A DNA stretch of 25,209 bases from a virus. Below, one piece after another: positions 594 through 25,209 of the stretch. A program made the position numbers and the translations under genes. The DNA lies in IMG/VR virus record IMGVR_UViG_3300047095_000126, positions 1-25,209 of that record, one strand, 5' to 3'. Within the stretch, counting starts at the first letter, position 1. Each line of letters opens with the position of its first letter. The notes under the pieces are model-generated. The model was not told where the DNA came from and ran no database searches. It worked only from the letters and a program-made list of their open reading frames with translations.

Positions 594-2957
594 ATGGCAC
601 GTCGTCGTCGCCGTCGTTCGTCTCCATCTCCGATGGATGCGGATCAGGCCGCATATCTCGAAACCTCCGCTCCCGTGCCGGGGGACGAGGACTATGCGGA
701 AGACATGGCCGAAGGCGGCGTCGAGGATGGCGCTGACGAGGACAATAATTCATACGGCCCTGGCAATGCGGATATGCGCCAGAAGCTCAATCCGCTCGAC
801 GAGACTGAGTTCCAGAACCGCGTCGGCATCGCCGTCCAGGCTGCAGAAAATTACATCGACACCCTAATCACGCCGATCCGCGTCCAGGCCGCTGAGTATT
901 ATCGCGGCGCGCCGTTCGGCGACGAGGAGGCGGGTAGATCTCAGGTGGTGCTTACGGAGGTGCGCGACACCATCCAGAGCATCATGCCGAGCCTCATGCG
1001 CATCTTCACGTCCGGCCAGCGGATTGTTGAATATATGCCGCGCACGGCTGAAGACGTCCCGACTGCTGAGCAAGCGTCGGATGCGGTGAATTTCATCTTC
1101 AACGAGATGAACCCCGGCTTCCAGATCCTTTACAGCGCATTCAAAGATGCGTTGCTCAAAAAGGTCGGCGTCGTCACCTGGTGGGCGGAAAGCGAAGACC
1201 GCGTCATCGAGCGGCATTTCTCTGGTCTGCAGAGAGAAGAGTTGCTGTTGATGATGCAGCAGAACCCGAATGCTCAACTGGTCTATGCGAACCCGGAGCC
1301 TGTTACGGATCCGATGACGCCCGAGACATACTCGGTTTGTGTGCGCCTTGTTGACCAGGAGAGGAAATATCGTGTTCGCGCATTGCCTCCTGAGTGCTTT
1401 ATCTGCGATCGGCGCGCTCGTGATACTGATAAGTTTTTTGATCTGGTCGGCTATCGCGACCTCGTTACGGTCTCGGAACTCATCGAGATGGGATACAACG
1501 AGGAAGATGTAATCGAACACGGCTCACCCGGAGAGGACAATCTCTGGATCGCTCAGATGGAAGAATTTGAGCGCAACCGTGGCATGTATTTTCCGACCGA
1601 CAACGACGACCCGACGATGCGTCGCGTGAAGTATATGAAAATCTTCATGCGCATCGATAAGGACGGGGATGGCATTGCGGAACTCCGCTGCATCGAATGC
1701 ATTGGTCGCGACTGTTTTGTCCTGAAGGATGAGATCGTCGATCACGTCCCGTTCGCTGTGTTCTGCCCCGATCCCGAGCCGCATGCAATCTTTGGACATT
1801 CGGTCGCCGACGTCACGATGGATCTCCAGCGCATCAAATCGCACGTCATGCGCGCGACGCTGGACAGCCTGGCTCAGTCGATCTTCCCCCGCACGGCGAT
1901 CGTCGAGGGCCAGGTCAATATTGACGACGTCCTGAACAAAGAGGTCGGCGCCGTCATCCGCATGCGCCAGGCTGGAGCCGTCCAGGATCTCTCCACCTCC
2001 TTCGTCGGCCAGCCGGCGATGGGCATCATTGAATACATCGACGAGATCAAAGCGCAGCGCACGGGCGTCACCCCGGCGAGCCAGGGTCTCGACGCTGATC
2101 TCCTACAATCGACCACGAAAGCCGCCGTCACGGCGCAGATCTCTGCCTCCCAGGAGCGCATTGAGCTGATCGCCCGCACGTTCGCTGAAAACGGCATGAA
2201 GCAGCTGTTCGGCGGTCTCCTCAAGATGATCTGCCGCCACCAGGACAAGCCGCTCCTGGTTCGCTTGCGCGGCGATTATGTCCAGGTCGATCCGACGACC
2301 TGGGATCCGAATATGGACTGCTCGGTCTCTGTGGCCCTGGGCCGTGGCGATGACGCGCAGCAGATGGCGTTCCTGACGACGGTCGCTCAGAAGCAGGAAC
2401 AGATCATCCAGCTCATGGGTTTGGACAACCCCCTGGTTAAGCTGTCGCAGTATCAATCGACGCTGAGCCAGATCGTGCGGAAAGCGGGTTACAAAAACCC
2501 CGACGCATTCTTCTCCCCGATCAGCCAGCAGCAGGAGGCGATGCTCGCCCAGCAGCAGGCTGCAATGAAGGCGCAGCAAAAGGATCCCAACGTCCTGCTC
2601 GCCGAGGTTGAGATGGCGAAGGCGCAGGCTGAGACTTACGCCAAGCTCCAGCAGCTCGCGATCGATCGCGCCCAGCTCCAGCTGGATGCGGATCTCAAGC
2701 GCGACCAGATGGAGGCCGACATCATCTTGAAGGCTGCTGATATTGCCGCGAAGAGCGGTGTCCAGGTCGATTGGCCCTCGATCATTGAGATGACCAGGAA
2801 GCCGCGCCAGGACATCCAGAACCTGGCCCAGACGCTCATCGACAACGAGAAGCTCGCCTCGGCGCAAGTTCTCTCGCAGATCGGCATGGGCCAGGCTCCG
2901 CAGCAACAGCAGCCAATGCCGCAGCCTAACGCTCCGGCGCCGATGATGCCGCAATGA
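594..2957 (+). CDS. Portal protein
   Basis: A 787-residue protein lies directly after TerL, preceded by a good ribosome site (AGGAAAG). Portals form the dodecameric ring at one capsid vertex through which DNA is packaged and ejected. The N-terminus is Arg-rich and then very acidic (about residues 15-55). The central part has the feel of the large portals of SU10/P22-like podoviruses. The last ~150 residues are Gln- and Ala-rich with long heptad-like stretches (QQQEAMLAQQQAAMKAQQ) and a Pro/Gln tail, which fits a coiled-coil barrel. Position, length and order (TerL-portal-scaffold-capsid) support the call more than any single motif. Confidence 0.87.
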   Translation: MARRRRRRSSPSPMDADQAAYLETSAPVPGDEDYAEDMAEGGVEDGADEDNNSYGPGNADMRQKLNPLDETEFQNRVGIAVQAAENYIDTLITPIRVQAAEYYRGAPFGDEEAGRSQVVLTEVRDTIQSIMPSLMRIFTSGQRIVEYMPRTAEDVPTAEQASDAVNFIFNEMNPGFQILYSAFKDALLKKVGVVTWWAESEDRVIERHFSGLQREELLLMMQQNPNAQLVYANPEPVTDPMTPETYSVCVRLVDQERKYRVRALPPECFICDRRARDTDKFFDLVGYRDLVTVSELIEMGYNEEDVIEHGSPGEDNLWIAQMEEFERNRGMYFPTDNDDPTMRRVKYMKIFMRIDKDGDGIAELRCIECIGRDCFVLKDEIVDHVPFAVFCPDPEPHAIFGHSVADVTMDLQRIKSHVMRATLDSLAQSIFPRTAIVEGQVNIDDVLNKEVGAVIRMRQAGAVQDLSTSFVGQPAMGIIEYIDEIKAQRTGVTPASQGLDADLLQSTTKAAVTAQISASQERIELIARTFAENGMKQLFGGLLKMICRHQDKPLLVRLRGDYVQVDPTTWDPNMDCSVSVALGRGDDAQQMAFLTTVAQKQEQIIQLMGLDNPLVKLSQYQSTLSQIVRKAGYKNPDAFFSPISQQQEAMLAQQQAAMKAQQKDPNVLLAEVEMAKAQAETYAKLQQLAIDRAQLQLDADLKRDQMEADIILKAADIAAKSGVQVDWPSIIEMTRKPRQDIQNLAQTLIDNEKLASAQVLSQIGMGQAPQQQQPMPQPNAPAPMMPQ

Positions 2958-3238
2958 GCGAACTCGACGCTGAGCAGCTCGCGCGCCAAGCGCAGAATAT
3001 TCTGAACTCCGACGCATTCAAAATCGCGATGGAGAAGATGGACGCCTACACGATCGAGATGTGGGCGAACGGGAACTTTAAGACGCCAGCGGAACGAGAA
3101 GAGGCTTACGGCCTCGTTCGCGGCGCAAGGACGTTCCGAGCGCGCCTGATTGGCCTGCTTGAGGACGCGAAACTCAGCAAGGCACAAGCCGAGACGCGGG
3201 AAAAACTCGCCCGCTCTCAAGGCACGCCCGCTCGCTGA
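2954..3238 (+). CDS. Small phage protein between portal and scaffold
   Basis: A 94-residue, mostly helical, charged protein with no membrane segment or signal peptide. It starts inside the portal stop codon (ATGA overlap), so it is translationally coupled to the portal. The middle contains an aromatic and acidic stretch (DAYTIEMWANGNF, about residues 32-44) followed by an Arg/Glu-rich helix. Small proteins are common at this place in podovirus head operons, but I do not recognise a named family. A role in head assembly is inferred only from position. Confidence 0.75.
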   Translation: MSELDAEQLARQAQNILNSDAFKIAMEKMDAYTIEMWANGNFKTPAEREEAYGLVRGARTFRARLIGLLEDAKLSKAQAETREKLARSQGTPAR

Positions 3239-3255
3239 GCAACCCAGAGAAATAG

Positions 3256-4275
3256 ATGTCTGATGGAACTCAGACGGCGCCGGCAAGCGAAAGCACCGGC
3301 ACCGTAGAGGAAGCTGCGTCCAAAATCGAAGCGCTGCTGTCGGGTAAAAAACCCGAGAAACGGTTAGCGGCTCCGGTAGAGGAGGCGGCACAGCCGGCCC
3401 CGGAAGCTGAACAGGCGGAAGAGGCTGAAACCGAGGATCTTGCGCCAGAGACGACGGCGTCCGACGAGGACGACGAGGCGCCTGATGCTCAACCCGAAAC
3501 CGATGATGAGGCTGAAGGCTCCGACGAGCCAGACCCGCTCTACACCGTTAAAATTAACGGCAAGGAAGAGAAGGTCTCGCTCAAAGAAGCTCTGAACGGC
3601 TATCAGCGGCAGCAGGATTATACGCGAGCCAAGCAAGAGTTCGCCGCCGAGAAACGTCAATTTTCGACAGAACTGGACGCTGCTCGTCAGGAGCGTGAGG
3701 TCTACTCACAGCTGCTGCCGGCGCTTATCCAGCGGATGCAGTCGTCAATGCCGACCGCGCCCGATCAGTCGCTGATCGACATCGACCCCTCGGCGTATCT
3801 TCGTCAAAAAGAAGCATATGAGCAGGCAATGGGTGATCTCCAGGCCGCGACCTCTGAGAGGCAGCGTCTGGAGCAAGAAACCAAGGTCGAGCAGCAGCGT
3901 AGGCTCCAAGCCTTTGTGGCAGAGAACGCGGCGAAGCTCCCTGAGTTAATCCCAGAGTGGAAAGATCGAAAAGCCTATGAGCGCGATCGCCCCAAGGTTC
4001 GGGACTATCTCGTCAGTCGCGGTTTCTCCGATGAGGAGATCAACCAGGCTTACGACGCCCGCCTTGTTGCGATGGCTGCCGACGGCATGCGCTGGCGCGA
4101 GCTGCAGAAAAGCAAGTTCAAGCCAACGGCGCCGCCGGCTGAGAAGGCTCTGAGACCGACACCGCCAAGCACATCTGCTCCGAAGGTAAATCGCGACGCG
4201 CAGGCTGCGCGCAATCGTCTCGCTAAATCTGGCCGCGTGGAAGATGCCGCTGCGGCCATTCGCGCACTCCTTTAA
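3256..4275 (+). CDS. Capsid scaffolding protein
   Basis: A 339-residue protein immediately upstream of the major capsid gene. Residues ~30-95 are extremely acidic and low in complexity (Glu, Asp, Ala, Pro). A conserved-looking segment around YTVKINGKEEKVSLKEALNGYQ (residues ~96-117) follows, then a long coiled-coil region (about 120-225). The C-terminus is basic (helix SAPKVNRDAQAARNRLAKSG). Acidic disorder, coiled coil and a basic capsid-binding tail are the usual build of a scaffold that shapes the procapsid and is lost before DNA fills it. The stop is 12 bases before the capsid ATG. Confidence 0.82.
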   Translation: MSDGTQTAPASESTGTVEEAASKIEALLSGKKPEKRLAAPVEEAAQPAPEAEQAEEAETEDLAPETTASDEDDEAPDAQPETDDEAEGSDEPDPLYTVKINGKEEKVSLKEALNGYQRQQDYTRAKQEFAAEKRQFSTELDAARQEREVYSQLLPALIQRMQSSMPTAPDQSLIDIDPSAYLRQKEAYEQAMGDLQAATSERQRLEQETKVEQQRRLQAFVAENAAKLPELIPEWKDRKAYERDRPKVRDYLVSRGFSDEEINQAYDARLVAMAADGMRWRELQKSKFKPTAPPAEKALRPTPPSTSAPKVNRDAQAARNRLAKSGRVEDAAAAIRALL

Positions 4276-4287
4276 TGGACTAGAAAA

Positions 4288-5786
4288 ATGGCTACCGTAA
4301 CTCGTTATGACTACTCTTCGTCGATCCGCGAAGATCTTGAGGATTGATTTAGTCCTCGTAAAATCGGGTGAACTGCAGGAACCCCTGACCGGATAAGCCG
4401 AAGGCAATCTGCAGCCAAGCCGCCTGATGTAAAAGGCAGGCGGAAGGTTCAACGACTAGACGGTGACGAAAGAATAATCCGTCCACGAGCGCCCGACAGC
4501 GCAAGCTGATGAAATAGTCTGAGCTGCATGGAAACATGCAGAGGTCGGTCATAAACAGGCCGGCGATAACAAGCTGATCATCTATAATATCTCGCCGACC
4601 AAGACGGCGTTTATGAACAATGTTGGTCGCACGACTGCGGACAACACCTACCACGAATGGCAGACCGACATCCTCGCTGACGCCAACGGCTCCAACGCCG
4701 CTGTCGAAGGCGCCGATGCTACGGACACCGCCTTTGTCGCTCCTTCGCGGTGTGGCAATTATACACAAATAAGCACGAAAACCCTGAATGTCAGCGGCAC
4801 GTCAGGTGCAGTCGATGCTGCCGGCATGAAGACGATTGAGGCTTACCTTAACTATGGGGTCGCCGCTTAGTAATGAGCGGTTGTAACTGGGTGAAATCGG
4901 TGAACATCCATCAAGCCGCCGTGGCTGAAATGGACAATACCGAGCCAAGCTGCAGAAATGCAGAAGGTGTAACGACTAGAGCGCAAGCTCGTAGGATCAA
5001 GCGATCCGAAGCGCCCAGCCCCTGCGAAAGCAGGGTGAAGAGATAGTCTGATCTCTGCGGTAACGTAGAGCGCCGAAAGGCGGGTTGAGCATCGCGAACT
5101 CAATCAAACATAATTGCATCGCCAAGCACGGCAAAGAGCTGAAGCGCGACATGGAGACGATCCTCCTGTCGAACCAGGCTGCGGTTGCTGGCGACGCCTC
5201 GACGGCTCGCAAGCTGGCCGGCTTCCCAACGTGGATCAAGACGACTGCTCAGACGCCTGCCGGCAACGGCATCGTCGTCGGCACCGTCACTGGCCCGGCG
5301 TATTCGGGCGGCGCTTCGACGGTTTCGGGCGCGCCGACGACCGCCTGGACGCTGACGAGCGGCTCGGCTGCTTTCACGGAAACTAACCTGAAAGACGCCA
5401 TCCGCAATATGTATCAGAAGGGTGGCGAACCCAAGATGATGCTCGTGTCGCCGGTCAATAAGGCCCGCGTCTCCGGCTTCGCTGGTCTCTCGCAGACGCG
5501 CGTTAATACCGAAGTCAAAAATGGTCAGGCGACCATTGTTGGCTCGGCTGACGTGTATCTGTCGGATTTCGGTTCGCTGGACATCGTCCCGTCGCTGTTC
5601 TGTAACGGCGCGTTCGCGTATTTCGTCGATCCTGATTACGCCAAGGTCGCCTATCTGCGTCCGTTCCAGCGCACGGAACTGGCCCGCACGGGTGACGCGA
5701 AGCGTTCGCAGCTGCTCGCGGAATACACCTTGGTCGTGAATAGCCCGTATGCTCATGCGGTCGTGGCTAACATCACGAACAGCTAA
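4288..5786 (+). CDS. Major capsid protein (DUF5309/SU10-type), split by two group I introns; join 4288-4344, 4577-4848, 5117-5786
   Basis: The gene looks broken into three frames but joins precisely when two group I introns are removed. Exon 1 gives 19 residues ending SSIREDLED. Exon 2 gives 90 codons plus two bases and opens with IIYNISPTKTAF, followed by NTYHEWQTDIL. Exon 3 completes a Leu codon (CT|C), continues IAKHGKELKRDME and ends SPYAHAVVANITNS. The joined protein is 332 residues, a normal length for this family. REDLxD-x-IYNISPT, HEWQTD and ELKRD are landmarks I recall for the DUF5309/SU10 major head proteins, and the spacing from AAG to ELKRD (14 residues) is restored by the proposed join. 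Exon 3 holds the rest of the HK97-like fold, including an ADVYLSDFGSLDIVPS strand region. The ribosome site before ATG 4288 is weak. A terminator follows the stop. Confidence 0.88.
4345..4576 (+). ncRNA. Group I intron 1 in the capsid gene (232 nt, no ORF)
   Basis: P1: exon GAGGAU (4339-4344) pairs with guide GUCCUC (4352-4357), ending in the required U-G pair. P3: UCGGG 4364-4368 with CCCGA 4492-4496. P4: CUGCAG 4373-4378 with 4409-4414. P6: CCGCCUG 4420-4426 with CAGGCGG 4437-4443. P7: GACUA 4454-4458 with UAGUC 4515-4519. P8: CAGC-GCAA-GCUG 4497-4508. P9: CUGCAU 4524-4529 with AUGCAG 4536-4541. P9.1: GUCGGUC 4544-4550 with GGCCGGC 4558-4564. The last base is G4576, and exon AUCA (4577-4580) can pair with UGAU at the intron start (P10). 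G4573 is an alternative 3' end, also in frame, adding one Leu; the family pattern D-x-IYN favours G4576. The first intron codon is an in-frame UGA. The extra stem between P7 and P3 points to subgroup IA. Confidence 0.9.
4849..5116 (+). ncRNA. Group I intron 2 in the capsid gene (268 nt, no ORF)
   Basis: P1: exon ACCU (4845-4848) with GGGU (4857-4860), ending U-G. P2: CCGCU 4863-4867 with AGCGG 4876-4880. P3: CUGGGU 4887-4892 with GCCCAG 5013-5018. P4: UCGGU 4897-4901 with ACCGA 4939-4943. P6: CUGCA 4950-4954 with UGCAG 4959-4963. P7: GACUA 4974-4978 with UAGUC 5044-5048. P7.1: GAGC-GCAA-GCUC 4979-4990. P7.2: GGAUC 4994-4998 with GAUCC 5003-5007. P8: CCCUGC-GAAA-GCAGGG 5020-5035. P9: 5053-5059 with 5064-5070. 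P9.1: CGCC-GAAA-GGCG 5071-5082. P9.2: 5083-5089 with 5099-5105. The terminal G is 5116, and exon CAU (5117-5119) pairs with AUG (4854-4856) as P10. P7.1/P7.2 mark subgroup IA. The start UAAC and the UUGUAA before P3 recall, from memory, the T4 td intron. Confidence 0.88.
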
Positions 5787-5848: not shown

Positions 5849-6175
5849 ATGGCCGAAAATTACAGAAAGCTGGACGTCGAGAATTTCGACTATGACCCGG
5901 CAAATGGCGTTCGTCAGCGTCTCGTCATCGAGCAAGACGGCGGTGTCCATCTCGAAAGCACCCAGGATGTCAGCCACATCCTAAAGGCGGCGCACGAAAG
6001 CCGCATGGAACATTCCAAACACGAAAAGCTCGGCGACGACGTCAAAATCGCTTCTGTCCCGATGCTGATAAGAGCCGACCTGATGAAAAAGGGCATCTGG
6101 CAGGACAAAAAGCGCCTGTTCCAGTGGCTGATGAATGAAGGTCGGCCCTTCCTGACTAGGGATATTTCGCTTTGA
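5849..6175 (+). CDS. Hypothetical phage protein (108 aa)
   Basis: A soluble, charged protein with no signal or membrane segment. It has a mid-region with several His residues (AAHESRMEHSKHEKLGDDVKIASVP, about 47-70) and a C-terminal segment GIWQDKKRLFQWLMNEGRPFLTRD. It sits between capsid and adaptor, right after the terminator, and its stop overlaps the TTG of the next gene. I do not recognise the family. A head-completion or virion role is inferred from position only. Confidence 0.75.
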   Translation: MAENYRKLDVENFDYDPANGVRQRLVIEQDGGVHLESTQDVSHILKAAHESRMEHSKHEKLGDDVKIASVPMLIRADLMKKGIWQDKKRLFQWLMNEGRPFLTRDISL

Positions 6176-6867
6176 CGACCTTCGCAGATCCGACATTCGC
6201 GGCAAATTATCAGGGTCTTTGCAACAAGATCGCTGACACGCTCAATCGTCAGGATCTGACGTCCGTTATCCCGGATTTCACCGTCATGGCGACGACGCGG
6301 ATCTCGCGCGACATGGCGCGGATCAAGCATCCCGGATCCATCACGCGCGCGATCGCCAGCGTCGTCAATGATTACGCGCCGCTGCCGACTGATTTCCTCT
6401 CCATGTATCAGCTCATGGATCAGGACACGCAGATGGCCCTGATCTACATCACGCCTGATCAGTCGATGACGATCCAGGCGCAAGGCTGGTCGCCTCAGAC
6501 CACGATCGTCCCGGTTCTGGCGCCTTACTACACGCCGACGCAGAACACGATCTACTACACGATCATGGGCAAGACGCTGCGCATGGTGCCGCCCCCGGCA
6601 AGCGCAACGCCGGCTACCCTTGAGATGTGGTACTACTCAAATCTGCCAGCGATCTCGACGGGCAACCCGGCGAACTGGGCGCTGACGCAATATCCCGACC
6701 TCTACCTGTATGGATCTCTGGTTCATACGGCGCCGTATCTCAAAAACGACGAGCGCATCCAGGTCTGGGAAGGCATCTATCAATCAATCCTAAATGACAT
6801 CGAGGTCGAGGCGGATCGCTCAATCCGCCCGCAGACCAAACTTGTCGCCGCTCGCAAGAGCTTCTGA
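6172..6867 (+). CDS. Head-tail adaptor protein (SU10 adaptor-like)
   Basis: A 231-residue protein that would sit below the portal and connect it to the tail. It starts at TTG 6172, which overlaps the previous stop (TTGA), with a purine-rich AGGG about ten bases upstream; no better start is near. The N-terminus is helical with a di-Arg/acidic patch (TTRISRDMARIKHPGSITRA, ~41-60). The middle is beta-rich and aromatic (PTQNTIYYTIMGKTLRMVPPP, ~121-141). Residues 145-195 carry LEMWYYSNLP and YPDLYLYGSLVHTAPYLK, a motif I associate with phage adaptor/gp4-like proteins of capsid operons. The C-terminus is an Arg/Lys tail. Confidence 0.75.
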   Translation: MTTFADPTFAANYQGLCNKIADTLNRQDLTSVIPDFTVMATTRISRDMARIKHPGSITRAIASVVNDYAPLPTDFLSMYQLMDQDTQMALIYITPDQSMTIQAQGWSPQTTIVPVLAPYYTPTQNTIYYTIMGKTLRMVPPPASATPATLEMWYYSNLPAISTGNPANWALTQYPDLYLYGSLVHTAPYLKNDERIQVWEGIYQSILNDIEVEADRSIRPQTKLVAARKSF

Positions 6868-7549: not shown

Positions 7550-9919
7550 ATGGCTTCCAAGATGTATAACCGCGCCCGTATGACGGTGACGTCAACTGGC
7601 ACTGGATCTCTGAGTTTGGGCGTGGCCGTTGCTGGCTACCAGACATTCTCGTCATCTGGCGCGCAGAACGGCGACACCGTCAGCTATACGATTGAGGACG
7701 GCGTTAAGTGGGAGGTGGGAACCGGCTCGTTTAACTCGGTTGCCGGCACTCTCTCGCGCACGGTTACACAGTCTTTTGATGGCACCACCTACAGCACGTC
7801 GGCGATCAGCGTCTCGACAAGCGCCCAGGTGTATATCACGGCTCTCGCGGCGGATATTGTCGTCAACGGCGGCCCGCTTGGAACGCCCAGCAGCGCGACG
7901 CTGACGAACGCCACCGGCCTGCCTCTTGCCACCGGCGTCACCGGCGCATTGCCGATCGCCAATGGCGGCACGGCTGCGACAGATGCGGCGACGGCTCGCA
8001 CGAACCTCGGCCTCGGTTCGCTTGCTACGCTTTCCAGCATCAACAACAGTAACTGGAGCGGCACTCAGCTTTCTATCAGTAACGGCGGCACGGGAGCTAC
8101 TACAGCCTCTGGCGCACGAACCAATCTTGGCGTTGCTATTGGTAGCGATGTGCAGGCTTGGGATGGCGACTTAGACGCTATTGCTGCGCTTGCTGGAACA
8201 AGTGGTTTACTCAAGAAAACCGCAGCTAACACTTGGACGCTAGATACGACGAGTTACCTAAGTGGTAGCATATCGTTGACGAGTGGCGTCACCGGCACAC
8301 TCCCGGTTGCGAACGGCGGCACCGGCCTCACCTCGTTGACTGCTGGCTACATTCCGTATGGCAATGGGACGGGTGCGTTTAGTTCGAGCGCGAACCTTAC
8401 CACAAATGGCTCAACTCTTACGGCAATCGGTGGTTTCGTCTCAAATACCGGCAGAACAATATCTGGTGGCTCCGGCGGCGCGATTATCTCCTCAAACGGT
8501 ATCAACAACGACATTGTGATGAACGGGCGCACATCCGCCATCACAGGCGGTTGGGCTGGCCTGCGTATTCATCAGGTATATAATCTTGATGGGTTGGCGT
8601 TGGTTGGCGATGCGAGCCAAACCGCAGCTTACATGCGGATTGAGAATAGTTCTGGTGGTAGCGTATTTACTGTTAATAGCGCCGGTAACGTAGGTATTGG
8701 GACGAGTTCGCCCGGCTCTAAACTTACCGTTAACGGCGCATCTGGAACAAACGTCAGCTATGTTGGAACTGCCGCTAATGGAGTTATTGTCGCGCCGTAT
8801 GACAGCGGCGCTCTGTATCATTTAGCTGCAACAACTAATAGCACCATATACTGCACAGGCTCCCAATCGAACATTCCGCTTGCATTATTTACCAACAATG
8901 CAGAGCGTATGCGTATTGATACTAGCGGCAACGTAGGTATCGGGACGAGTTCGCCTGCCGCACAGCTTCATGTTCAAAACGGCGGTGGCAATTCAATAAG
9001 TATCCTAGGGCAATATGGTAGCGGAACCAGAGCGCAAGTTGCGGCATACTCCAACCAAGTGGACATCCGTGCGTATAACGGAACCAACGATATTATGTCG
9101 TTTACGGTTGGCGCATCAGAACGCGCCCGCATCACATCAGCGGGTGAACTGCTGGTTGGGACGACGAGCAACCCAAGTAATTTTAAACTTCTTGTCAATG
9201 GATATATGCGAGACAACAGCGTTGGTGGCGCTGGTGAGGGTATTTATTTATACAGAGGAGACGGCAATCCTTTTGACGTATTTATTAGAAACCAAAGCAG
9301 CACTGGTTTTATTCATACGGCAACATATTATGCTTGGAAAAACTACGCTGGAACCACTGAGTTTGGCCGTTTTGATACCAGCGGAAATTGGCTGGTTGGC
9401 GGAACGACACAATACGCTGGTGCTAGAACCACAACATTTGCATCTGCGAATAATACAAGAGGGTTGTCGGTAGTAAATGCTAATTCAGGTGATGCAGGAA
9501 CTGCGCCTCTTTACATCAGTAAATATGATGCAACTACGACAACGTCGCAGATATTCGTTCAATTTGCGATAAGCAATACATCTGCTGGCTCAGGCCAAAT
9601 CAACGCTAATGGTGCTAATACTGCCGCGTTTGGTTCTTACTCTGATAGACGACTTAAACAGAATATCGTCGATTTGCCCTCGCAGCTATCCAACATTCTC
9701 GCGCTCCGTCCGCGTGAATTTGACTATATCGAAAGTGAAGGCGGTGGCCATCAAATCGGATTTCTCGCGCAGGAAATGCAGCAAGTTTATCCTGACGCCG
9801 TTGGTGAACGCGCAGACGGTATGCTGACTATTACTGCTTGGAGCAAAACAGAAGCCCGTCTTGTAAAAGCCATTCAAGAACTCGCCGCCAAAGTATCAGC
9901 ACTAGAGGCTAAACAATGA
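7550..9919 (+). CDS. Tail fibre with C-terminal S74 self-cleaving chaperone domain
   Basis: 789 residues. The N-terminal ~105 residues ([34 protein letters not shown]) form a common virion-attachment domain. Residues ~110-290 carry repeats of the type [21 protein letters not shown] and [14 protein letters not shown] receptor-facing region with two NVGIGTSSP motifs follows. The last ~92 residues are a Peptidase_S74 intramolecular chaperone, starting at SDRRLKQNI (Ser698, catalytic Ser with the Lys downstream), then [16 protein letters not shown] and a C-terminal coiled coil. In this family the chaperone helps the fibre trimerise and is then cut off at the Ser. Base composition falls visibly between about 8600 and 9650. 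Confidence 0.9.
8687..8955 (+). repeat. Direct repeat within fibre gene (two 26-base copies)
   Basis: The copies at 8687-8712 and 8930-8955 share AACGTAGGTAT-Y-GGGACGAGTTCGCC with one difference and encode NVGIGTSSP. The motif is widespread in S74-type fibres. The near-identity at the DNA level suggests a recent duplication or a recombination point in the fibre. Confidence 0.7.
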
Positions 9920-10248
9920 GCAACACATACACGTGGGTAATCAGCCAACTCGACTGCTACCCTACGCAAAACAACAATACTGACGTTGTGTTCACCGTCC
10001 ACTGGCGTCGTCAGGCGACTGACGGCTCCGGCCACAACGGGGACATATACGGTTCGCAAGCTGTGATGCTTGATCCTGACGCGCCTTTCACGCCGTATGC
10101 CGATTTGACGGAAGCACAGGTTATCGGCTGGCTTGAAGAAGCATTCGGCACCGAAACGCTTGCCGCGCAGGAAGCCGCTCTCGACAAGCAGATTGCGGAT
10201 CAGATCAACCCGCCCGTCGTAAATCCGCCGCTTCCTTGGGTAGCCTGA
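9916..10248 (+). CDS. Tandem paralogue A, small phage protein
   Basis: 110 residues, starting inside the fibre stop (ATGA overlap). It is related to the next gene: both begin NTYxW, share VFxVxWRxxATDG, a GSQ...LDPxxxFTPYxxLT segment, a Trp-containing helix and the ending DQQIAxQI/NPP...LPW. The first ~55 residues look beta-rich, the rest helical. Similar proteins are commonly found next to fibre genes; I recall a DUF7936-like family but cannot confirm it. A fibre-associated or assembly role is inferred. Confidence 0.75.
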
Positions 10249-10574
10249 TGAACACATACGAATGGACGCCTGAGCGTCTTGACGCATACCCGCAGAAAGA
10301 CGGCTTCGATAACGTTGTGTTCGTCGTCTACTGGCGTGTGACTGCCACTGACGGCGAGCATGAGGCGACTGTGTCTGGCTCGCAGATGGTTGAGTTGGAT
10401 CCCGAGGGCGATTTCACACCCTACGACAAGCTGACGAAGGATCAGGTTCTGTCCTGGGTTCAGTCGTCAATGGGGCAGGGCAAGATCGCCGAGATTGAGG
10501 GCTACCTCGATCAGCAGATCGCAAACCAAATTACGCCGCCGGAAGCATCTCCGGCATTACCTTGGGGGAATTGA
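10248..10574 (+). CDS. Tandem paralogue B, small phage protein
   Basis: 108 residues from ATG 10248, which shares a base with the previous stop (TGATG). A longer reading from TTG 10236 is possible, but the ATG start makes the N-terminus MNTYEW align with its neighbour. It has the same plan as paralogue A: VVFVVYWRVTATDG, GSQMVELDPEGDFTPYDKLT, a Trp helix and the C-terminal LPWGN. The stop overlaps the next ATG (TGATG), so all three genes are translationally coupled. Confidence 0.75.
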   Translation: MNTYEWTPERLDAYPQKDGFDNVVFVVYWRVTATDGEHEATVSGSQMVELDPEGDFTPYDKLTKDQVLSWVQSSMGQGKIAEIEGYLDQQIANQITPPEASPALPWGN

Positions 10575-11674: not shown

Positions 11675-13087
11675 ATGGCTAATACGTTTACCCCGACATA
11701 CAATCTGACAAAGCCTGAGATCGGCTCGGATACGAATGCCTGGGGCGCGCATCTCAACGCCGATCTGGATACGATTGACGCCAACATGGTGTCTCGCATC
11801 CTGACGAGCGCGCAGACGCTGGCGGGCGCGATCAACCTCCCGTCAAACGGTTTGAACGTCGGCTCCGGCCAGTTGCGTGTCACGGGCGGCAATGTCACGG
11901 CCTCCGGTGGCCTGACGGTGTCGGGCGCGACGCTGCTTTCCACGACGCTGACGGTAAGCTCTAACGTCACCTTCCAAGGCGCATTCACGCTGAGCGGCAC
12001 TGGCGCGACGAGCCTGGGCGGCGCGCTGTCAGTCACCGGCGCGACGACGCTGGCCTACAATGGGCTGAATGTCGGTTCTGGGCAGCTGAACTGCACGGGC
12101 GGAAATGTGGCGATGTCCGGCAATTTGCTTGTTTCCGGCTCTATCACGGCAGCCAGTCAGTCGCTCTCCAGCCTGTCGGTGTCCGGCAACATCGCTGGCG
12201 GCAGCCTGAATATCGGCTCAACGCAGCTTGTGGTGTCTGGCGGCAACGTCTCCACCTCCGGCTCTTTCTCTGCCAGCGGCAATATCTCGGCGTCTGGAAC
12301 GCTTTACGCCGGCAGCACCGCGACAATGGCTGGCGCGTTGAATGTCTCTGGATATACGAGCCTGGCGTCTAATGGGTTGAACGTCGGCTCCGGCCAGCTC
12401 TATGTCTCCAGCGGCAATGTGTATGTCGCAAACGCCTTATCCGTTGGCGGCGTGGCGTATCTTGGCGCTGTCTCAACGGGTACGGTTGGCTGCGCCGGCA
12501 TTACATGCACGACGATCAACACGCAGGGCAATACGATCTCTGCAGGAACGATCAGCTGCGGCGCTGTGAATACTAACGGCAACGCGCTTACGTCTGGTTC
12601 TGTCTCGACAGGCAACATTGCCTCGTCTGGTTATGTCACGGCTACAAACTACATGTCGATCGCAAATACGGCGCCTACGCTGTATATGAACGACACCGAT
12701 TACGGGCAGTTTGCGTTCCATAGTAATTCTGGGCTGATCGGTTGCTTGAGAACATCCGGCTCTTGGGCCAGCTACACTGACAACTCCGGTAATTTCACGG
12801 CCACAGGCAACGTCACCGCTTACTCCGACGCCAAGCTCAAAAAGAACGTCGAAACGATCCAGGATCCGATGTCTCTGGTTCGCCGGATGCGCGGCGTGTT
12901 CTATGATCGCATCGAGGATGACAAGGCCGGCGTCGGCGTTATCGCTCAGGAGATGCAGGAGGTTTTGCCACAGGTTGTTCAAACAAACGACGGAACGCTC
13001 AGCGTAGCGTATGGCAATATCTCCGGCGTCCTTATTGAGGCTCTGAAAAATATCGACGCTCGCCTGGCTGCTGTGGAGGCGCGTTAA
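11675..13087 (+). CDS. Second tail fibre with S74 chaperone domain
   Basis: 470 residues. The N-terminus (MANTFTPTYNLTKPEIGSDTNAWG, LNADLDTIDA) is a typical phage fibre attachment domain. The shaft is built from repeats of the form NGLNVGSGQLxVxGGNVxxSGxLxVSG, about four clear copies. The C-terminal ~87 residues are an S74 chaperone: SDAKLKKNV (Ser384 with Lys), GVGVIAQEMQEVLPQVV, then VAYGNISGVLIEALK and a terminal coiled coil. The stop TAA shares its last base with the next ATG. The two fibres differ fully in the shaft, so they probably bind different surface targets or sit at different places. Confidence 0.88.
   Translation: MANTFTPTYNLTKPEIGSDTNAWGAHLNADLDTIDANMVSRILTSAQTLAGAINLPSNGLNVGSGQLRVTGGNVTASGGLTVSGATLLSTTLTVSSNVTFQGAFTLSGTGATSLGGALSVTGATTLAYNGLNVGSGQLNCTGGNVAMSGNLLVSGSITAASQSLSSLSVSGNIAGGSLNIGSTQLVVSGGNVSTSGSFSASGNISASGTLYAGSTATMAGALNVSGYTSLASNGLNVGSGQLYVSSGNVYVANALSVGGVAYLGAVSTGTVGCAGITCTTINTQGNTISAGTISCGAVNTNGNALTSGSVSTGNIASSGYVTATNYMSIANTAPTLYMNDTDYGQFAFHSNSGLIGCLRTSGSWASYTDNSGNFTATGNVTAYSDAKLKKNVETIQDPMSLVRRMRGVFYDRIEDDKAGVGVIAQEMQEVLPQVVQTNDGTLSVAYGNISGVLIEALKNIDARLAAVEAR
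11849..12424 (+). repeat. Shaft-encoding tandem repeats in the second fibre
   Basis: Four imperfect units with the core 'TTGAACGTCGGCTCCGG' or variants occur near 11850, 12060, 12205 and 12372, each followed by the GGCGGCAATGT-type segment. The first and fourth are nearly identical over the core. They encode NGLNVGSGQLxV..GGNV. Confidence 0.65.
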
Positions 13088-18926: not shown

Positions 18927-20356
18927 TGCCGCTTCCGCTAGATGAATTTTTCCGCCGCATAACCGGCCAGCCGATGGCTCTGCCTGGCGCCGTCGCCCCC
19001 GCTGGCCCTGTTACCGCTCCGACGCCGACCCCCGCCGCTGTCGCCGCGCCGACGCTACGGGAGACGCAGCAGCAAGATTTCAACAACGCCGCGCAAAGCC
19101 GTATGGGCCAGCTCGGCATGATGCTTGTCGCCGCCGGCCAGCGCATGACGCCGCGTGAGCGCGCGACGATCCTGGCGCAGGCGCCGCAGTATATGGACGG
19201 CATCCAGAACGACATGCAGATGGCGGCGCAGGCCCGTCTGATGAATACCCGCGCGCAGCAGGAGCAGGGCGATGTCGAACGTCGCAATGCTCTCTTTGAG
19301 CGCATGAAATCCGAGCCTGGCTTCGCTGAGAAATTTGGCGTCACGCCGGAAGCGCTTGCGACGCTGTCGCCGTCCTCCCTGGAGCAGATCGTCGTCCACC
19401 GCGCGACGCAGGATCCGCTCGACCGCGCCGCCAAGATCGCCGCGATCAACGCCGCCTCCAAGCCAAAATTTGATAAGATCGGCACCGACGCACTAGGCCA
19501 GGATCAATATGGGTGGATATATCCCACTGGGAAAATTGATCCCTATGTCCAAGGAGGCGAAGGATCATCAGCTGGCGCCGCGCCATCCCTTGGCAGTGTA
19601 GCAAGTCAGCTTGATGGGAAAACGCCGCAGGAACGATTAGAAATAATCAAGAAAAATTATCCTGCATTAGCGTCAGAGGTTGAAGGTATCGCTATGGGTC
19701 GGATGCCATTTCCAACCAGGAAATTTGGCACGAAGCAAGGCGATGCGTTAAGCACTTTGGTGTCATGGATCGACCCGTCCTACACGCCAATGACATACGA
19801 CGAGCGCAAAAAGACTGAGCTTGACTATTCACCTGGCGGCACAGTTGGGAAGCAAATTTTATTTGCGAATACCGGCATCAAACACGGCGGAGAGCTTCTT
19901 GGTCTCGCCGACAAATTACCCAACCACACAAATTGGGGAATGTTCAATAAAACCGTTAATGAGCTAGACGCCGCACGACAAGTTAATGCAGCGAAAGGCG
20001 GCCCGGTCAATTCGTACAAGCAAGCCGCCATCAACTTTATGGACGAAATCGGCAAGGCGTTGGGCGCAGGAGCGTCTGGTGAGCGCGAAGAATTGAAGCG
20101 TCAGATTGAAGCTGCGAACGGCCCTGAAGCGATCAAAGATGTCATCAGGACGCAGATAACCCTTTTGAAGGACAAGATCGAAACGCAGCAAGGCGAATAC
20201 AAAAAAACTATGGGGCCGATGGCGGGAAATCCAAATTTTGTTTCCGAAGAAGCGCAGGCCTGGCTCAATAAAATATTCCAAAAAGAAGATAACGCGCCCG
20301 CTACTCAACAGAACAATCTTCCGCATGGCGTGCGCTCAATTAGAAGGGTCAACTGA
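18926..20356 (+). CDS. Probable internal virion (ejection) protein, 476 aa
   Basis: Starts on the last base of the previous stop (TAATG). It has a Pro/Ala linker (~18-45), a long helical, Gln/Met-rich region (~46-140), a linker, and a C-terminal helical half with AYRxxAINF-like pattern NSYKQAAINFMDEIGKALGAG and an acidic/Lys coiled coil. The composition shifts within the gene at about 19470: upstream is very GC-rich, downstream has clearly more A and T. No enzyme motif is seen. Its place between the transglycosylase-like gene and the next internal-like gene is that of podovirus core/ejection proteins. Confidence 0.65.
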   Translation: MPLPLDEFFRRITGQPMALPGAVAPAGPVTAPTPTPAAVAAPTLRETQQQDFNNAAQSRMGQLGMMLVAAGQRMTPRERATILAQAPQYMDGIQNDMQMAAQARLMNTRAQQEQGDVERRNALFERMKSEPGFAEKFGVTPEALATLSPSSLEQIVVHRATQDPLDRAAKIAAINAASKPKFDKIGTDALGQDQYGWIYPTGKIDPYVQGGEGSSAGAAPSLGSVASQLDGKTPQERLEIIKKNYPALASEVEGIAMGRMPFPTRKFGTKQGDALSTLVSWIDPSYTPMTYDERKKTELDYSPGGTVGKQILFANTGIKHGGELLGLADKLPNHTNWGMFNKTVNELDAARQVNAAKGGPVNSYKQAAINFMDEIGKALGAGASGEREELKRQIEAANGPEAIKDVIRTQITLLKDKIETQQGEYKKTMGPMAGNPNFVSEEAQAWLNKIFQKEDNAPATQQNNLPHGVRSIRRVN

Positions 20357-22014
20357 TGCCGACATATGAAATCGTCGGGCCTGACGGCGGAACTTATCAT
20401 ATTGACGCCGATACGGAGGAGGCGGCCCTTTCCGCGTTCCATCCAGAAGCGAACAAATATCAGCAGGCCGCGTCAGATCTTTACGCCAAGCAGAAAAAAT
20501 TTGGCTTGACCGGCGGAATGTCGGAAGGTCTTGCAAGCCGTGTCCTGCAGGGCGGAACTCTCGGGTTCGGTGACGAGATCCTTGCCGGCCTGGAGACGCC
20601 GATCGAAATGGCTCGGCGTGGCGTCGGCCCGTCAGAGGGATACAAATACGCCAAGGCATTCCAAGACGTTAAACGAGACGAGGCGCGCCGGAACACCGGA
20701 GCGTTCGGAACGGCGGCTGAGATCGGCGGCTCGTTTCTTCCTAGTGGCGTAGTCGCCAAAGGCGTTCAGCGTTTCTTCGGCGCTCCTGCTGCCGCCGGCA
20801 CGGCTCTGACAACCGGCGGATCCGCGACTAATCTACCGGCTGTGGCTGGTCAGGTTCTCCCAAAGGCTCAGAAGCTCAATCCGTTTGGGCAGAGCGTCGC
20901 CACAGGGGCCATCACGGGCGGCGTCCAGGGCGCCGGAGAAGAAGGCACTGATGGTATTGTGCCGGGCATGGTTGCCGGCGCGGCTGGAGGCGCAGCTGGA
21001 CACGCTCTTGGATCTGTTCTGGATCGAGGTGCGGGTCTTGTTAATGGCGCGCCGCGCGTGGCCCCGGCTCCCTCAACAGATGCTATACACGACGCGGCGC
21101 AGAACGCCTATGACGCATTTACGAATGCGGGTGGTCTATTCACTCAGCAGGGCGTCAATGACCTATCCAGCGCCATTAGAACCCGCCTGCAGAACGAAGG
21201 GTGGGCGCCGGAGCTTGCACCCCAGGTTACGGCTTTGCTTCGCCGGCTCGAAAGTTATCGTCAGGGTGGGGCGAGCGGCGTTGGACAGATGACGCCGCGA
21301 GAACTGCAAACCCTTCGCAAGATCGCGTCTAATATCAGTAAATCAGCTGATGATCAGACATCGTTCTATGGCGGCGTTTTGACCGATGAGCTGGACAACT
21401 TTTTGAGCGTGGCGAACCCGGCTCATTTTACTGGACGGCCAGGTGGAGCGTCGCAGGCGGATCTCGCTTATACCCTTCAAGGAGCGAATAAACTTTGGTC
21501 GCAATATAAGAAATCGGCAGACATTGATCTTGCGAAATGGAAGGCTGAGAACCGAGCCGCATCGACATATTCCGGCGGCAACGAGAACAACGCCTTCCGG
21601 CAGAACCTGAAAAGCCTTTGGGAGAAGCGCGGTCGGGAAGGCTTTACGCCTGACGAGAACGCCGCATTCCAGACGGCTGTGCGTGGCGGGACTGCTGAGA
21701 ATGTCGCGCGCGGCGTTGGCAAGTTAGCAGCATCGCGTGGTGGTTTGAGCGCGATGGCGCAGCTCGCGGCAATGCTGCATTCGCCTCATATCGCTATACC
21801 GCTGGAGGTGACGGCAGAGGGGGCTAAATACCTCGGCGATCGATTGACGCGGCGTAATCTTGAAGAGGTGTCGCGCGTCGTTCGCAACGGTGGTGTCAGA
21901 AGGACAGCCGCACCACCAGCAGGGAAACTGCAGAACTTTACTCGGCAGATGTCTCCTTATCTCGCCGGGCCTGCAGGAGCATTTGCGGTTCGAGGTCTCC
22001 TCGACGAGCCGTAA
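20356..22014 (+). CDS. Probable internal virion (ejection) protein, 552 aa
   Basis: Coupled by TGATG. The N-terminus (YEIVGPDGGTYHIDADTEEAALSAFHPE) is a small beta-alpha module found at the start of many phage internal proteins. After that come Gly- and Ala-rich hydrophobic stretches (GAITGGVQGAGEEGTDGIVPGMVAGAAGGAAGHALG, ~188-222), which could insert into membrane on ejection. A helical half (~245-500) follows. Low-complexity hydrophobic Gly/Ala segments in a long helical protein are common in DNA ejection proteins. No enzymatic motif is seen. The stop TAA shares a base with the following small ORF. Confidence 0.65.
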   Translation: MPTYEIVGPDGGTYHIDADTEEAALSAFHPEANKYQQAASDLYAKQKKFGLTGGMSEGLASRVLQGGTLGFGDEILAGLETPIEMARRGVGPSEGYKYAKAFQDVKRDEARRNTGAFGTAAEIGGSFLPSGVVAKGVQRFFGAPAAAGTALTTGGSATNLPAVAGQVLPKAQKLNPFGQSVATGAITGGVQGAGEEGTDGIVPGMVAGAAGGAAGHALGSVLDRGAGLVNGAPRVAPAPSTDAIHDAAQNAYDAFTNAGGLFTQQGVNDLSSAIRTRLQNEGWAPELAPQVTALLRRLESYRQGGASGVGQMTPRELQTLRKIASNISKSADDQTSFYGGVLTDELDNFLSVANPAHFTGRPGGASQADLAYTLQGANKLWSQYKKSADIDLAKWKAENRAASTYSGGNENNAFRQNLKSLWEKRGREGFTPDENAAFQTAVRGGTAENVARGVGKLAASRGGLSAMAQLAAMLHSPHIAIPLEVTAEGAKYLGDRLTRRNLEEVSRVVRNGGVRRTAAPPAGKLQNFTRQMSPYLAGPAGAFAVRGLLDEP

Positions 22015-24360: not shown

Positions 24361-25209
24361 TCAATCATTTGCAGCCTTATCCTGCTTGTCCTGTGGGACG
24401 ATTGTGGGAGATGCGGCTGCGTCCAGGGCGGCGCGCACGTCCTCGGCGGCGAGGTGGGCGTAGCGCTGGGTCGTCGTGATCCGCTTGTGGCCGAGAGCCT
24501 TGCTTGCCGCCATCAGGTTGCCTGTCTTGCGCACGACACGAGAGGCGGTCGTGTGCCGGATGTCATGCAGGCGCAGATCGGTGACGCCGGATCTTGCCCT
24601 AGCACGATTGTAAGCCGTGGAGAGGGATGCCGGGCAGATCGGGACGCGAGACCCGCGAGGTGCGTCTGCGACATCAGCGCGCTTTACGACATAGGTGAAG
24701 ACGCGGGTAGGGTGATTGCCAAGCTCGCCCTGAAGGATCGCCATAGCGGCTTTTGGCAGCGGGCGCCGATCAACCGTCCCGCCCTTACCGCGAACCGTCA
24801 TCATGGCGGTGTCCATATCAACGTCGTTCCAGACCAGGTTGCAGGCCTCGGCACGCCGGATCCCGGTGGCGAGCAGGAACTTGACGATAGGGATATAATC
24901 TTGGCGGAAGGAGCTAAACAGACGCTGCTCCTCGTCGGCTGACATCTCGCGAACGCGCTCGGCTTCCTCTTTCAAGAGATGTTCGCGCCAGTTAATCCGC
25001 TTGACCGGCTGCTCAAGGAACTCGGCGTAGCGCAGGATCGCGCGCATTGGCTCAGTGACCGAGCGATTGACGGTGCCGGCGGTAACATCCTCGGCGCGGC
25101 GCTTGGCGACGAGCTGGGCCACGACCTGGTTGTCGATCGTAGCAAGCGCTCTTTTCGAGCCGATCTGCATGTTAAGCCATTTCAAAAAACGCACGACATC
25201 CTTGTGGTC
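24361..25209 (-). CDS. int: Tyrosine-type phage integrase (5' partial at window edge)
   Basis: The frame stays open to the edge (residues before GTG 25194 read DHKDV), so the true start is outside. Numbering from that GTG, the catalytic set is present: Arg113 (ATGIRRAEA), Lys137 in a beta turn (RGKGG), His210 and Arg213 (HDIRHTTAS), His236 (LGHKRI) and Tyr245 (TTQRYAHL). The region before residue 85 is the core-binding domain; the arm-binding domain is outside. It integrates the phage at its att site, and its 3' end lies 33 bases from the tRNA-Gly segment. Two TGTGGGA motifs lie within its last codons. Confidence 0.92.
   Translation of the reverse strand, partial: DHKDVVRFLKWLNMQIGSKRALATIDNQVVAQLVAKRRAEDVTAGTVNRSVTEPMRAILRYAEFLEQPVKRINWREHLLKEEAERVREMSADEEQRLFSSFRQDYIPIVKFLLATGIRRAEACNLVWNDVDMDTAMMTVRGKGGTVDRRPLPKAAMAILQGELGNHPTRVFTYVVKRADVADAPRGSRVPICPASLSTAYNRARARSGVTDLRLHDIRHTTASRVVRKTGNLMAASKALGHKRITTTQRYAHLAAEDVRAALDAAASPTIVPQDKQDKAAND

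What the first reader, a model, noticed from the sequence alone, without database searches (positions are those of the whole stretch)
4288..5786. Capsid gene interrupted twice by group I introns
The MCP reading frame is split by two independent group I introns, and the exons join in frame at places that restore family landmarks (REDLED|IIYNISPT and EAYL|IAKHGKELKRD). Phage group I introns are known mostly in replication, nucleotide-metabolism, terminase and lysis genes. Two in one major capsid gene, the most highly expressed late gene, is unusual to my knowledge. A normal annotation would report three broken fragments or a pseudogene. Splicing speed would then limit or time capsid production.
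Basis: partly seen in the sequence, partly recalled or inferred. Interest (0 to 1): 0.92.

Follow-up and report, generated by a model that had tools for sequence, protein, structure and literature searches.

The report
Phage capsid gene with two introns
The coat-protein gene of this bacterial virus is cut by two small RNA introns of a self-splicing kind, and a survey of other virus contigs shows coat-protein genes hit by such introns again and again, so the case looks real but is not unique.

Summary
Window 4288-5786 is an SU10-type major capsid gene (PF17236) in three exons, split by two ORF-less group I introns, 4345-4576 (232 nt) and 4849-5116 (268 nt). Both exceed the RF00028 cut-off (77.8 and 69.9 bits against 50). 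An IMG/VR contig with a 98% identical capsid protein (L001) has the gene uninterrupted, with breakpoints at the predicted splice sites. Codon differences from it are 84 synonymous and 6 non-synonymous, which argues against a pseudogene.

The claim of rarity does not hold. Multi-intron capsid genes are in print (PMC7886860). A gene-blind scan for this intron core gave 120 IMG/VR loci; 26 flanking fragments were SU10-type capsid and 41 fell in capsid clusters. A second core gave 30 of 120. In 28 SU10-type genes I mapped 35 introns at 14 sites, up to four per gene. Introns at different sites of this gene are often close relatives.

Splicing itself, and any timing of capsid production by it, was not tested. 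How the introns move is open.

The parts
4288..4344 (+). Capsid gene exon 1 (codons 1-19); its tail GAGGAT is the P1 target of intron 1
   Evidence: aligned without a break to intact L001 up to 4343
4345..4576 (+). Group I intron 1, 232 nt, no ORF found in it; P1 guide GUCCUC pairs with exon GAGGAU (U-G at the splice site); its first in-frame codon is the stop UGA
   Evidence: RF00028 77.8 bits; fold z -4.31; P1; stop; covariation in 32 introns of the family; absent in L001 and L081
4577..4848 (+). Capsid gene exon 2 (codon 20 to the first two bases of codon 110)
   Evidence: collinear with L001 3058-3329 without gaps
4849..5116 (+). Group I intron 2, 268 nt, no ORF found in it; P1 ACCU:GGGU (short), P10 CAU:AUG next to it; in-frame stop 22 nt in
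   Evidence: RF00028 69.9 bits; fold z -4.71; P1/P10; stop; same site filled in L081, empty in L001
5117..5786 (+). Capsid gene exon 3 (last base of codon 110 to stop)
   Evidence: PF17236 E 1.2e-52 for the ORF piece 5085-5786; collinear with L001 from 5117
594..2957 (+). SU10-type portal protein, upstream gene of the same head module
   Evidence: PF23899 633.9 bits
3256..4275 (+). Head scaffolding protein
   Evidence: phrog_3927 E 3.4e-56
6172..6867 (+). SU10-type adaptor protein
   Evidence: PF24175 E 4.3e-28

Best explanation
The window carries a working SU10-type major capsid gene with two group I introns that are only distantly alike (55% identical) and carry no ORF. Inferred: each intron folds into a ribozyme in the pre-mRNA, pairs its guide sequence with the end of its exon and excises itself, so that 332 codons are joined. 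Inferred: ribosomes on exon 1 or exon 2 stop at an in-frame stop just after the 5' splice site, before the ribozyme core, so that translation need not unfold it. Shown by comparison: the introns are present or absent at exact sites between close relatives, and members of the same intron family sit at other sites of the same gene in other phages. Inferred from this: they are guests that are or were mobile, and the capsid gene is a recurrent target of this family.
For: Rfam hits; exact empty sites in L001; site 1 empty and site 2 filled in L081; 84 synonymous against 6 non-synonymous codon differences from L001, and 153 against 14 from L081, which also carries intron 2; 20 of 30 predicted core pairs with changes on both sides in 32 introns; P1 score with the own exon 10.66 on average against 5.05 with exons of other sites, own above the mean of the others in 34 of 35; in-frame stop within 46 nt of the 5' splice site in 35 of 35; 35 introns at 14 sites in 28 SU10-type genes.
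Against: No RNA or protein data: splicing is not shown. P1 of intron 2 is weak: 39% of T-ending positions in the 250 nt upstream pair with it at least as well (0% for intron 1; mean over 35 introns 12%, one at 100%). Stops come early in the other frames too (medians 22, 26 and 3 nt), so their place is weak evidence of selection. The codon pattern shows selection on the protein between lineages, not that this very copy is expressed. No endonuclease was found in the window (31 of 110 mechanical ORFs scanned), so how these introns moved is open.
Confidence: 0.93

Rival explanations
1. The gene is a decayed pseudogene; the inserts are relics that no longer splice.
For: No expression data; the unspliced frame stops right after codon 19.
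Against: 84 synonymous against 6 non-synonymous codon differences from L001 and 153 against 14 from L081; P1, core and terminal G are present in both introns; portal, scaffold and adaptor genes beside it are intact ORFs.
Confidence: 0.04
2. The introns sit in the capsid gene because they regulate it: slow or conditional splicing delays or meters capsid production.
For: None tested.
Against: Presence is patchy: L001 lacks both while its capsid protein is 98% identical; 100 relatives fetched by protein similarity (80 viral, 20 genomic; L081 and L102 left out) have a single capsid ORF of 280-332 aa, though that list favours intact genes. Sites and introns differ between phages.
Confidence: 0.05
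3. On movement only: the introns change sites by RNA-level reverse splicing guided by the IGS, without an endonuclease.
For: 32 of 35 mapped introns are under 400 nt; sister introns at codons 110 and 258 share the target UAC[C/G]U|CA, and in L081 both introns have GGGU where the guide should be (my reading of the sequence; the script chose another pairing for the one at 258).
Against: Over 13 sites, similarity of introns does not track similarity of targets (Mantel r 0.04, 757 of 2000 permutations as high). At other site pairs sister introns have different guides. Two of three long introns at codon 26 carry HNH ORFs, and 5 of 10 tested fragments on the other side of the intron at non-SU10 capsid loci are endonucleases. 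A review says no direct experimental evidence supports the whole pathway (PMC3984707, passage).
Confidence: 0.3

Closest known systems
crAss-like phages of the Delta and Zeta groups (PMC7886860, passages read)
   Same: Group I introns in the major capsid gene; [quoted passage not shown]
   Different: Large phages of the human gut whose introns were recognised there by endonuclease domains; here short introns without ORF in an SU10-type head module
Mycobacteriophage LittleE capsid intron, cluster J (PMC3706429, passages read)
   Same: Capsid gene intron shown by RT-PCR and protein sequencing; U before, G at the end of the intron; intron-less relatives
   Different: Insertion of 819 bp with an endonuclease ORF on the other strand; one intron in the gene
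Phage C72C1 (OQ984150.1), SU10-type capsid gene with one intron
   Same: Same gene family and intron class (RF00028 81.8 bits), 251 nt, site 4 nt upstream of the window's second site
   Different: One intron; annotated as two head-protein pieces, the intron not recorded
Twort and T4 group I introns (genes recalled; Twort's 'single gene with three introns' seen only as a cited title)
   Same: Phage group I introns, several in one gene
   Different: In orf142, nrdE, td, nrdB and nrdD rather than the capsid gene (recalled)

Membership tests
Group I self-splicing intron (RF00028) | Covariance-model score above the curated cut-off | tested here: met
   77.8 and 69.9 bits against 50
Group I self-splicing intron (RF00028) | P1 with U-G at the 5' splice site, terminal G, P3-P9 core with P7 | tested here: met
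   GACUA and UAGUC, read by me as the strands of P7, are invariant in 32 introns. P1 of intron 2 is only four pairs
Group I self-splicing intron (RF00028) | Exact removal restores the host protein | tested here: met
   Empty sites in L001
Group I self-splicing intron (RF00028) | Guanosine-dependent self-splicing | not testable with these tools
   Needs RNA work
Subgroup IA | Extra hairpins P7.1/P7.2 between P7 and the 3' strand of P3 (recalled rule) | tested here: inconclusive
   Hairpins are predicted there, but no subtype models were available
Mobile intron with its own homing endonuclease | Endonuclease ORF in the intron | tested here: not met
   232 and 268 nt; the minus-strand ORFs overlapping them (4349-4768, 4867-5103) match no PHROG
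SU10-type major capsid protein (PF17236) | Profile match along the protein | tested here: met
   Two ORF pieces cover profile positions 30-104 and 109-292 of 292; the spliced protein is 98% identical to intact L001 over residues 1-332

The most novel reading that the evidence does not exclude
Major capsid genes, not DNA-metabolism genes, are the main home of small group I introns in environmental tailed phages, and within this gene the introns spread by hopping between sites and re-fitting a short guide sequence to each new exon.
Probability: 0.42. Interest if true: 0.72.

Novelty: new member of a known kind. Interest (0 to 1): 0.52.

Why it matters
A 2025 research article (PMC12350094, passage read) says phage group I introns show apparent preferences for genes of nucleotide synthesis and DNA metabolism, and that this has remained mysterious. 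The two samples here point to major capsid genes of several families. If a full survey agrees, a gene that many phages need in great amount depends on ribozymes, capsid genes are being annotated in pieces, and the 14 sites, with empty and differently filled relatives, form a natural series for testing how introns without an ORF move.

Tried and rejected
Pseudogene: made unlikely by the codon pattern. Endonuclease in the window: none among 31 distinct ORFs scanned of the 110 mechanical ORFs (79 not scanned). General rule that introns hop to sites with similar target sequence: not supported. Early in-frame stop as a selected trait: left as weak. A third intron-core pattern gave 16 loci, which were not labelled. 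Frequency in isolates: of 299 phage records with a capsid match, the rows seen (40 best, 60 spread, with overlap) show only C72C1 with an insert; PVA7 has two pieces but no insert-sized gap. The intron-led scans cannot give the share of capsid genes that carry an intron.

Rows dropped: of 29 pattern loci with a capsid match, L168 (splice sites ambiguous), L138 (intron beside a tape-measure gene), L133 and L174 (pattern before codon 23, not mapped) were left out, leaving 25 plus window, L081 and L105. Further intron cores before codon 24 in L111 and L179 were not mapped. Site labels 259/260 were merged into 258, 115 into 113, 31 into 26, and L132/L210 relabelled 256, by hand from junction peptides. 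The first intron of L150 failed automatic mapping and was placed by hand. The three introns over 400 nt were left out of the tree and the covariation. L228 and L242 were dropped from the 122 fragments to keep the 120 loci. The two samples share 8 loci.

Full report
What is there. The window is a virus record of 25,209 bases. Its head genes are of the phage SU10 type: portal (PF23899), scaffold, capsid (PF17236) and adaptor (PF24175). Between 4288 and 5786 the capsid frame is cut twice. Rfam places a complete group I intron model over 4297-4541 (77.8 bits) and over 4834-5070 (69.9 bits), cut-off 50. I set the borders at 4345-4576 and 4849-5116: each intron is preceded by U, ends in G, and its guide pairs with the exon end. 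Joined, the exons give 332 codons and a stop.

Proof of the borders. The IMG/VR contig L001 encodes the protein at 98% identity without interruption. Its DNA aligns to the window in blocks that break at 4343|4577 and 4848|5117; base 4344 is a C/T difference. It has no intron match. L081, from a Methylocystaceae MAG, has site 1 empty, site 2 filled by an intron 83% identical over 232 aligned columns, and a further intron at codon 258. Codon differences are 84 synonymous to 6 non-synonymous against L001 and 153 to 14 against L081.

Ribozyme structure. Thirty-two introns of this family, all under 400 nt, align. Their consensus fold has 30 pairs, which I read as P3, P4, P5, P6 and P9; 20 have at least one sequence changed on both sides with the pair kept. 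P1 fits the own exon: mean score 10.66 against 5.05 with exons of other sites, own above the mean of others in 34 of 35. Against this, for the window's second intron 39% of T-ending positions in the 250 nt upstream score as high (0% for the first; mean of 35 introns 12%).

How common it is. For each locus the longest open fragment beside the intron was taken by one rule and labelled: 26 of 120 matched SU10_MCP; then came another major head family (phrog_267, 8), DNA polymerase (7) and a LAGLIDADG endonuclease family (7). A second core, with a different P7 flank, also stopped at 120 loci (fragments). There the leading PHROGs were two major head families (10 and 8) and endonuclease VII (8), then psbA (7) and SU10_MCP (6); in Pfam, psbA's family led with 7 before SU10_MCP with 6. 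One fragment can match several families, so I grouped all 240 fragments: 101 clusters, of which 21 (147 fragments) were labelled, the SU10 one by its profile and 20 by one representative each. Capsid clusters hold 41 of 120 and 30 of 120; endonuclease clusters 21 and 21. Limits: the first pattern came from SU10 capsid introns; the samples are the first 120 of more and share 8 loci; 93 fragments are unlabelled; a gene beside an intron core is not proved to be cut. Of the 39 fragments in non-SU10 capsid clusters I scanned the other side for 10: 2 continued the same capsid family, 5 were endonucleases, 1 was of unknown function, 2 had no match.

Sites and kinship. In 28 SU10-type genes 35 introns were mapped at 14 sites. 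Codon 258 is used in 11, codon 109 in 5; L150 has four. On a tree of the 32 short introns (13 sites) the sites cluster but also switch: 15 changes, where 12 is the least possible and 20.2 the shuffled mean. The window's second intron and its counterpart in L081, both at codon 110, join five introns of codon 258 with support 100/97; the window's first intron, at codon 19, joins three of codon 113 with 97/94. The introns of L182 at codon 21 and L150 at codon 52 are 92% identical over 212 columns, while the two window introns are 55% identical, so those two are not recent copies of each other. At codon 258, guide GCGU faces exon ACGU in most cases and, by my reading, GGGU faces ACCU in L081 (sequences; the script picked another pairing there). 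But target similarity does not predict intron kinship over all sites (Mantel r 0.04).

Movement. Two introns at codon 26 (902 and 920 nt) carry ORFs with an HNH domain; the other 33 are 529 nt or shorter, 32 of them under 400. My best guess is DNA homing at established sites, with nucleases lost or supplied from elsewhere, and rarer hops to new sites. Reverse splicing is possible for the 110/258 pair but not shown.

Known and new. Capsid introns are published: crAss-like phages with several in one gene (PMC7886860, passages); mycobacteriophage LittleE with proof of splicing, and lactococcal Tuc2009 named there (PMC3706429, passages). Homing endonuclease genes near capsid genes are also known: 31% of the neighbourhoods of one family (PMC10448857, passage). 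In the listings of ten full-text searches and passages of ten papers I saw none that names the capsid gene as a leading home of phage group I introns. I read no paper whole, and most subscription journals are not held.

Changes made on re-checking: the number of window ORFs scanned, the Pfam order in the second sample, the weak P1 of intron 2 and the loci shared by both samples were corrected or added; confidence was lowered a little for the P1 result, and the odds of the novel case for the psbA lead in Pfam and the shared loci.

Noticed in passing
L105 (OQ984150.1) 2992-4193: Phage C72C1 is deposited with its capsid gene as two 'major head protein' pieces and three small opposite-strand ORFs; its group I intron is not recorded.
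   Followed up: yes
L150 2253-4074, minus strand: One capsid gene with four introns; those at codons 21 and 52 are 82% identical over 212 columns, and by my reading their guides (GAUC, GAGC) differ by one base in step with their exons (GAUU, GCUU).
   Followed up: partly
Second-core sample, cluster of 7 led by L277, L252, L349: Seven of 120 loci with the second intron core have psbA (photosystem II D1) as the fragment beside the intron.
   Followed up: no
L228 (G001 contig 151, 4764-4972): The genome that holds L081 has a third group I intron match (50.7 bits) on another contig.
   Followed up: no
window 20356-22014: A 552-aa protein matches phrog_21712 'major head protein' although the capsid gene is at 4288-5786; the family label may be wrong.
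   Followed up: no
window 24361-25194, minus strand: Integrase of the PF00589 family near the end of the record: the phage may be temperate.
   Followed up: no
window 7550-9919 and 11675-13087: Two tail-fibre-like proteins whose C-terminal parts match some of the same PHROGs, such as phrog_5668 and phrog_18186.
   Followed up: no
window 9916-10248 and 10236-10574: Two neighbouring small proteins match the same family of unknown function, phrog_7802: probably a tandem gene duplication.
   Followed up: no
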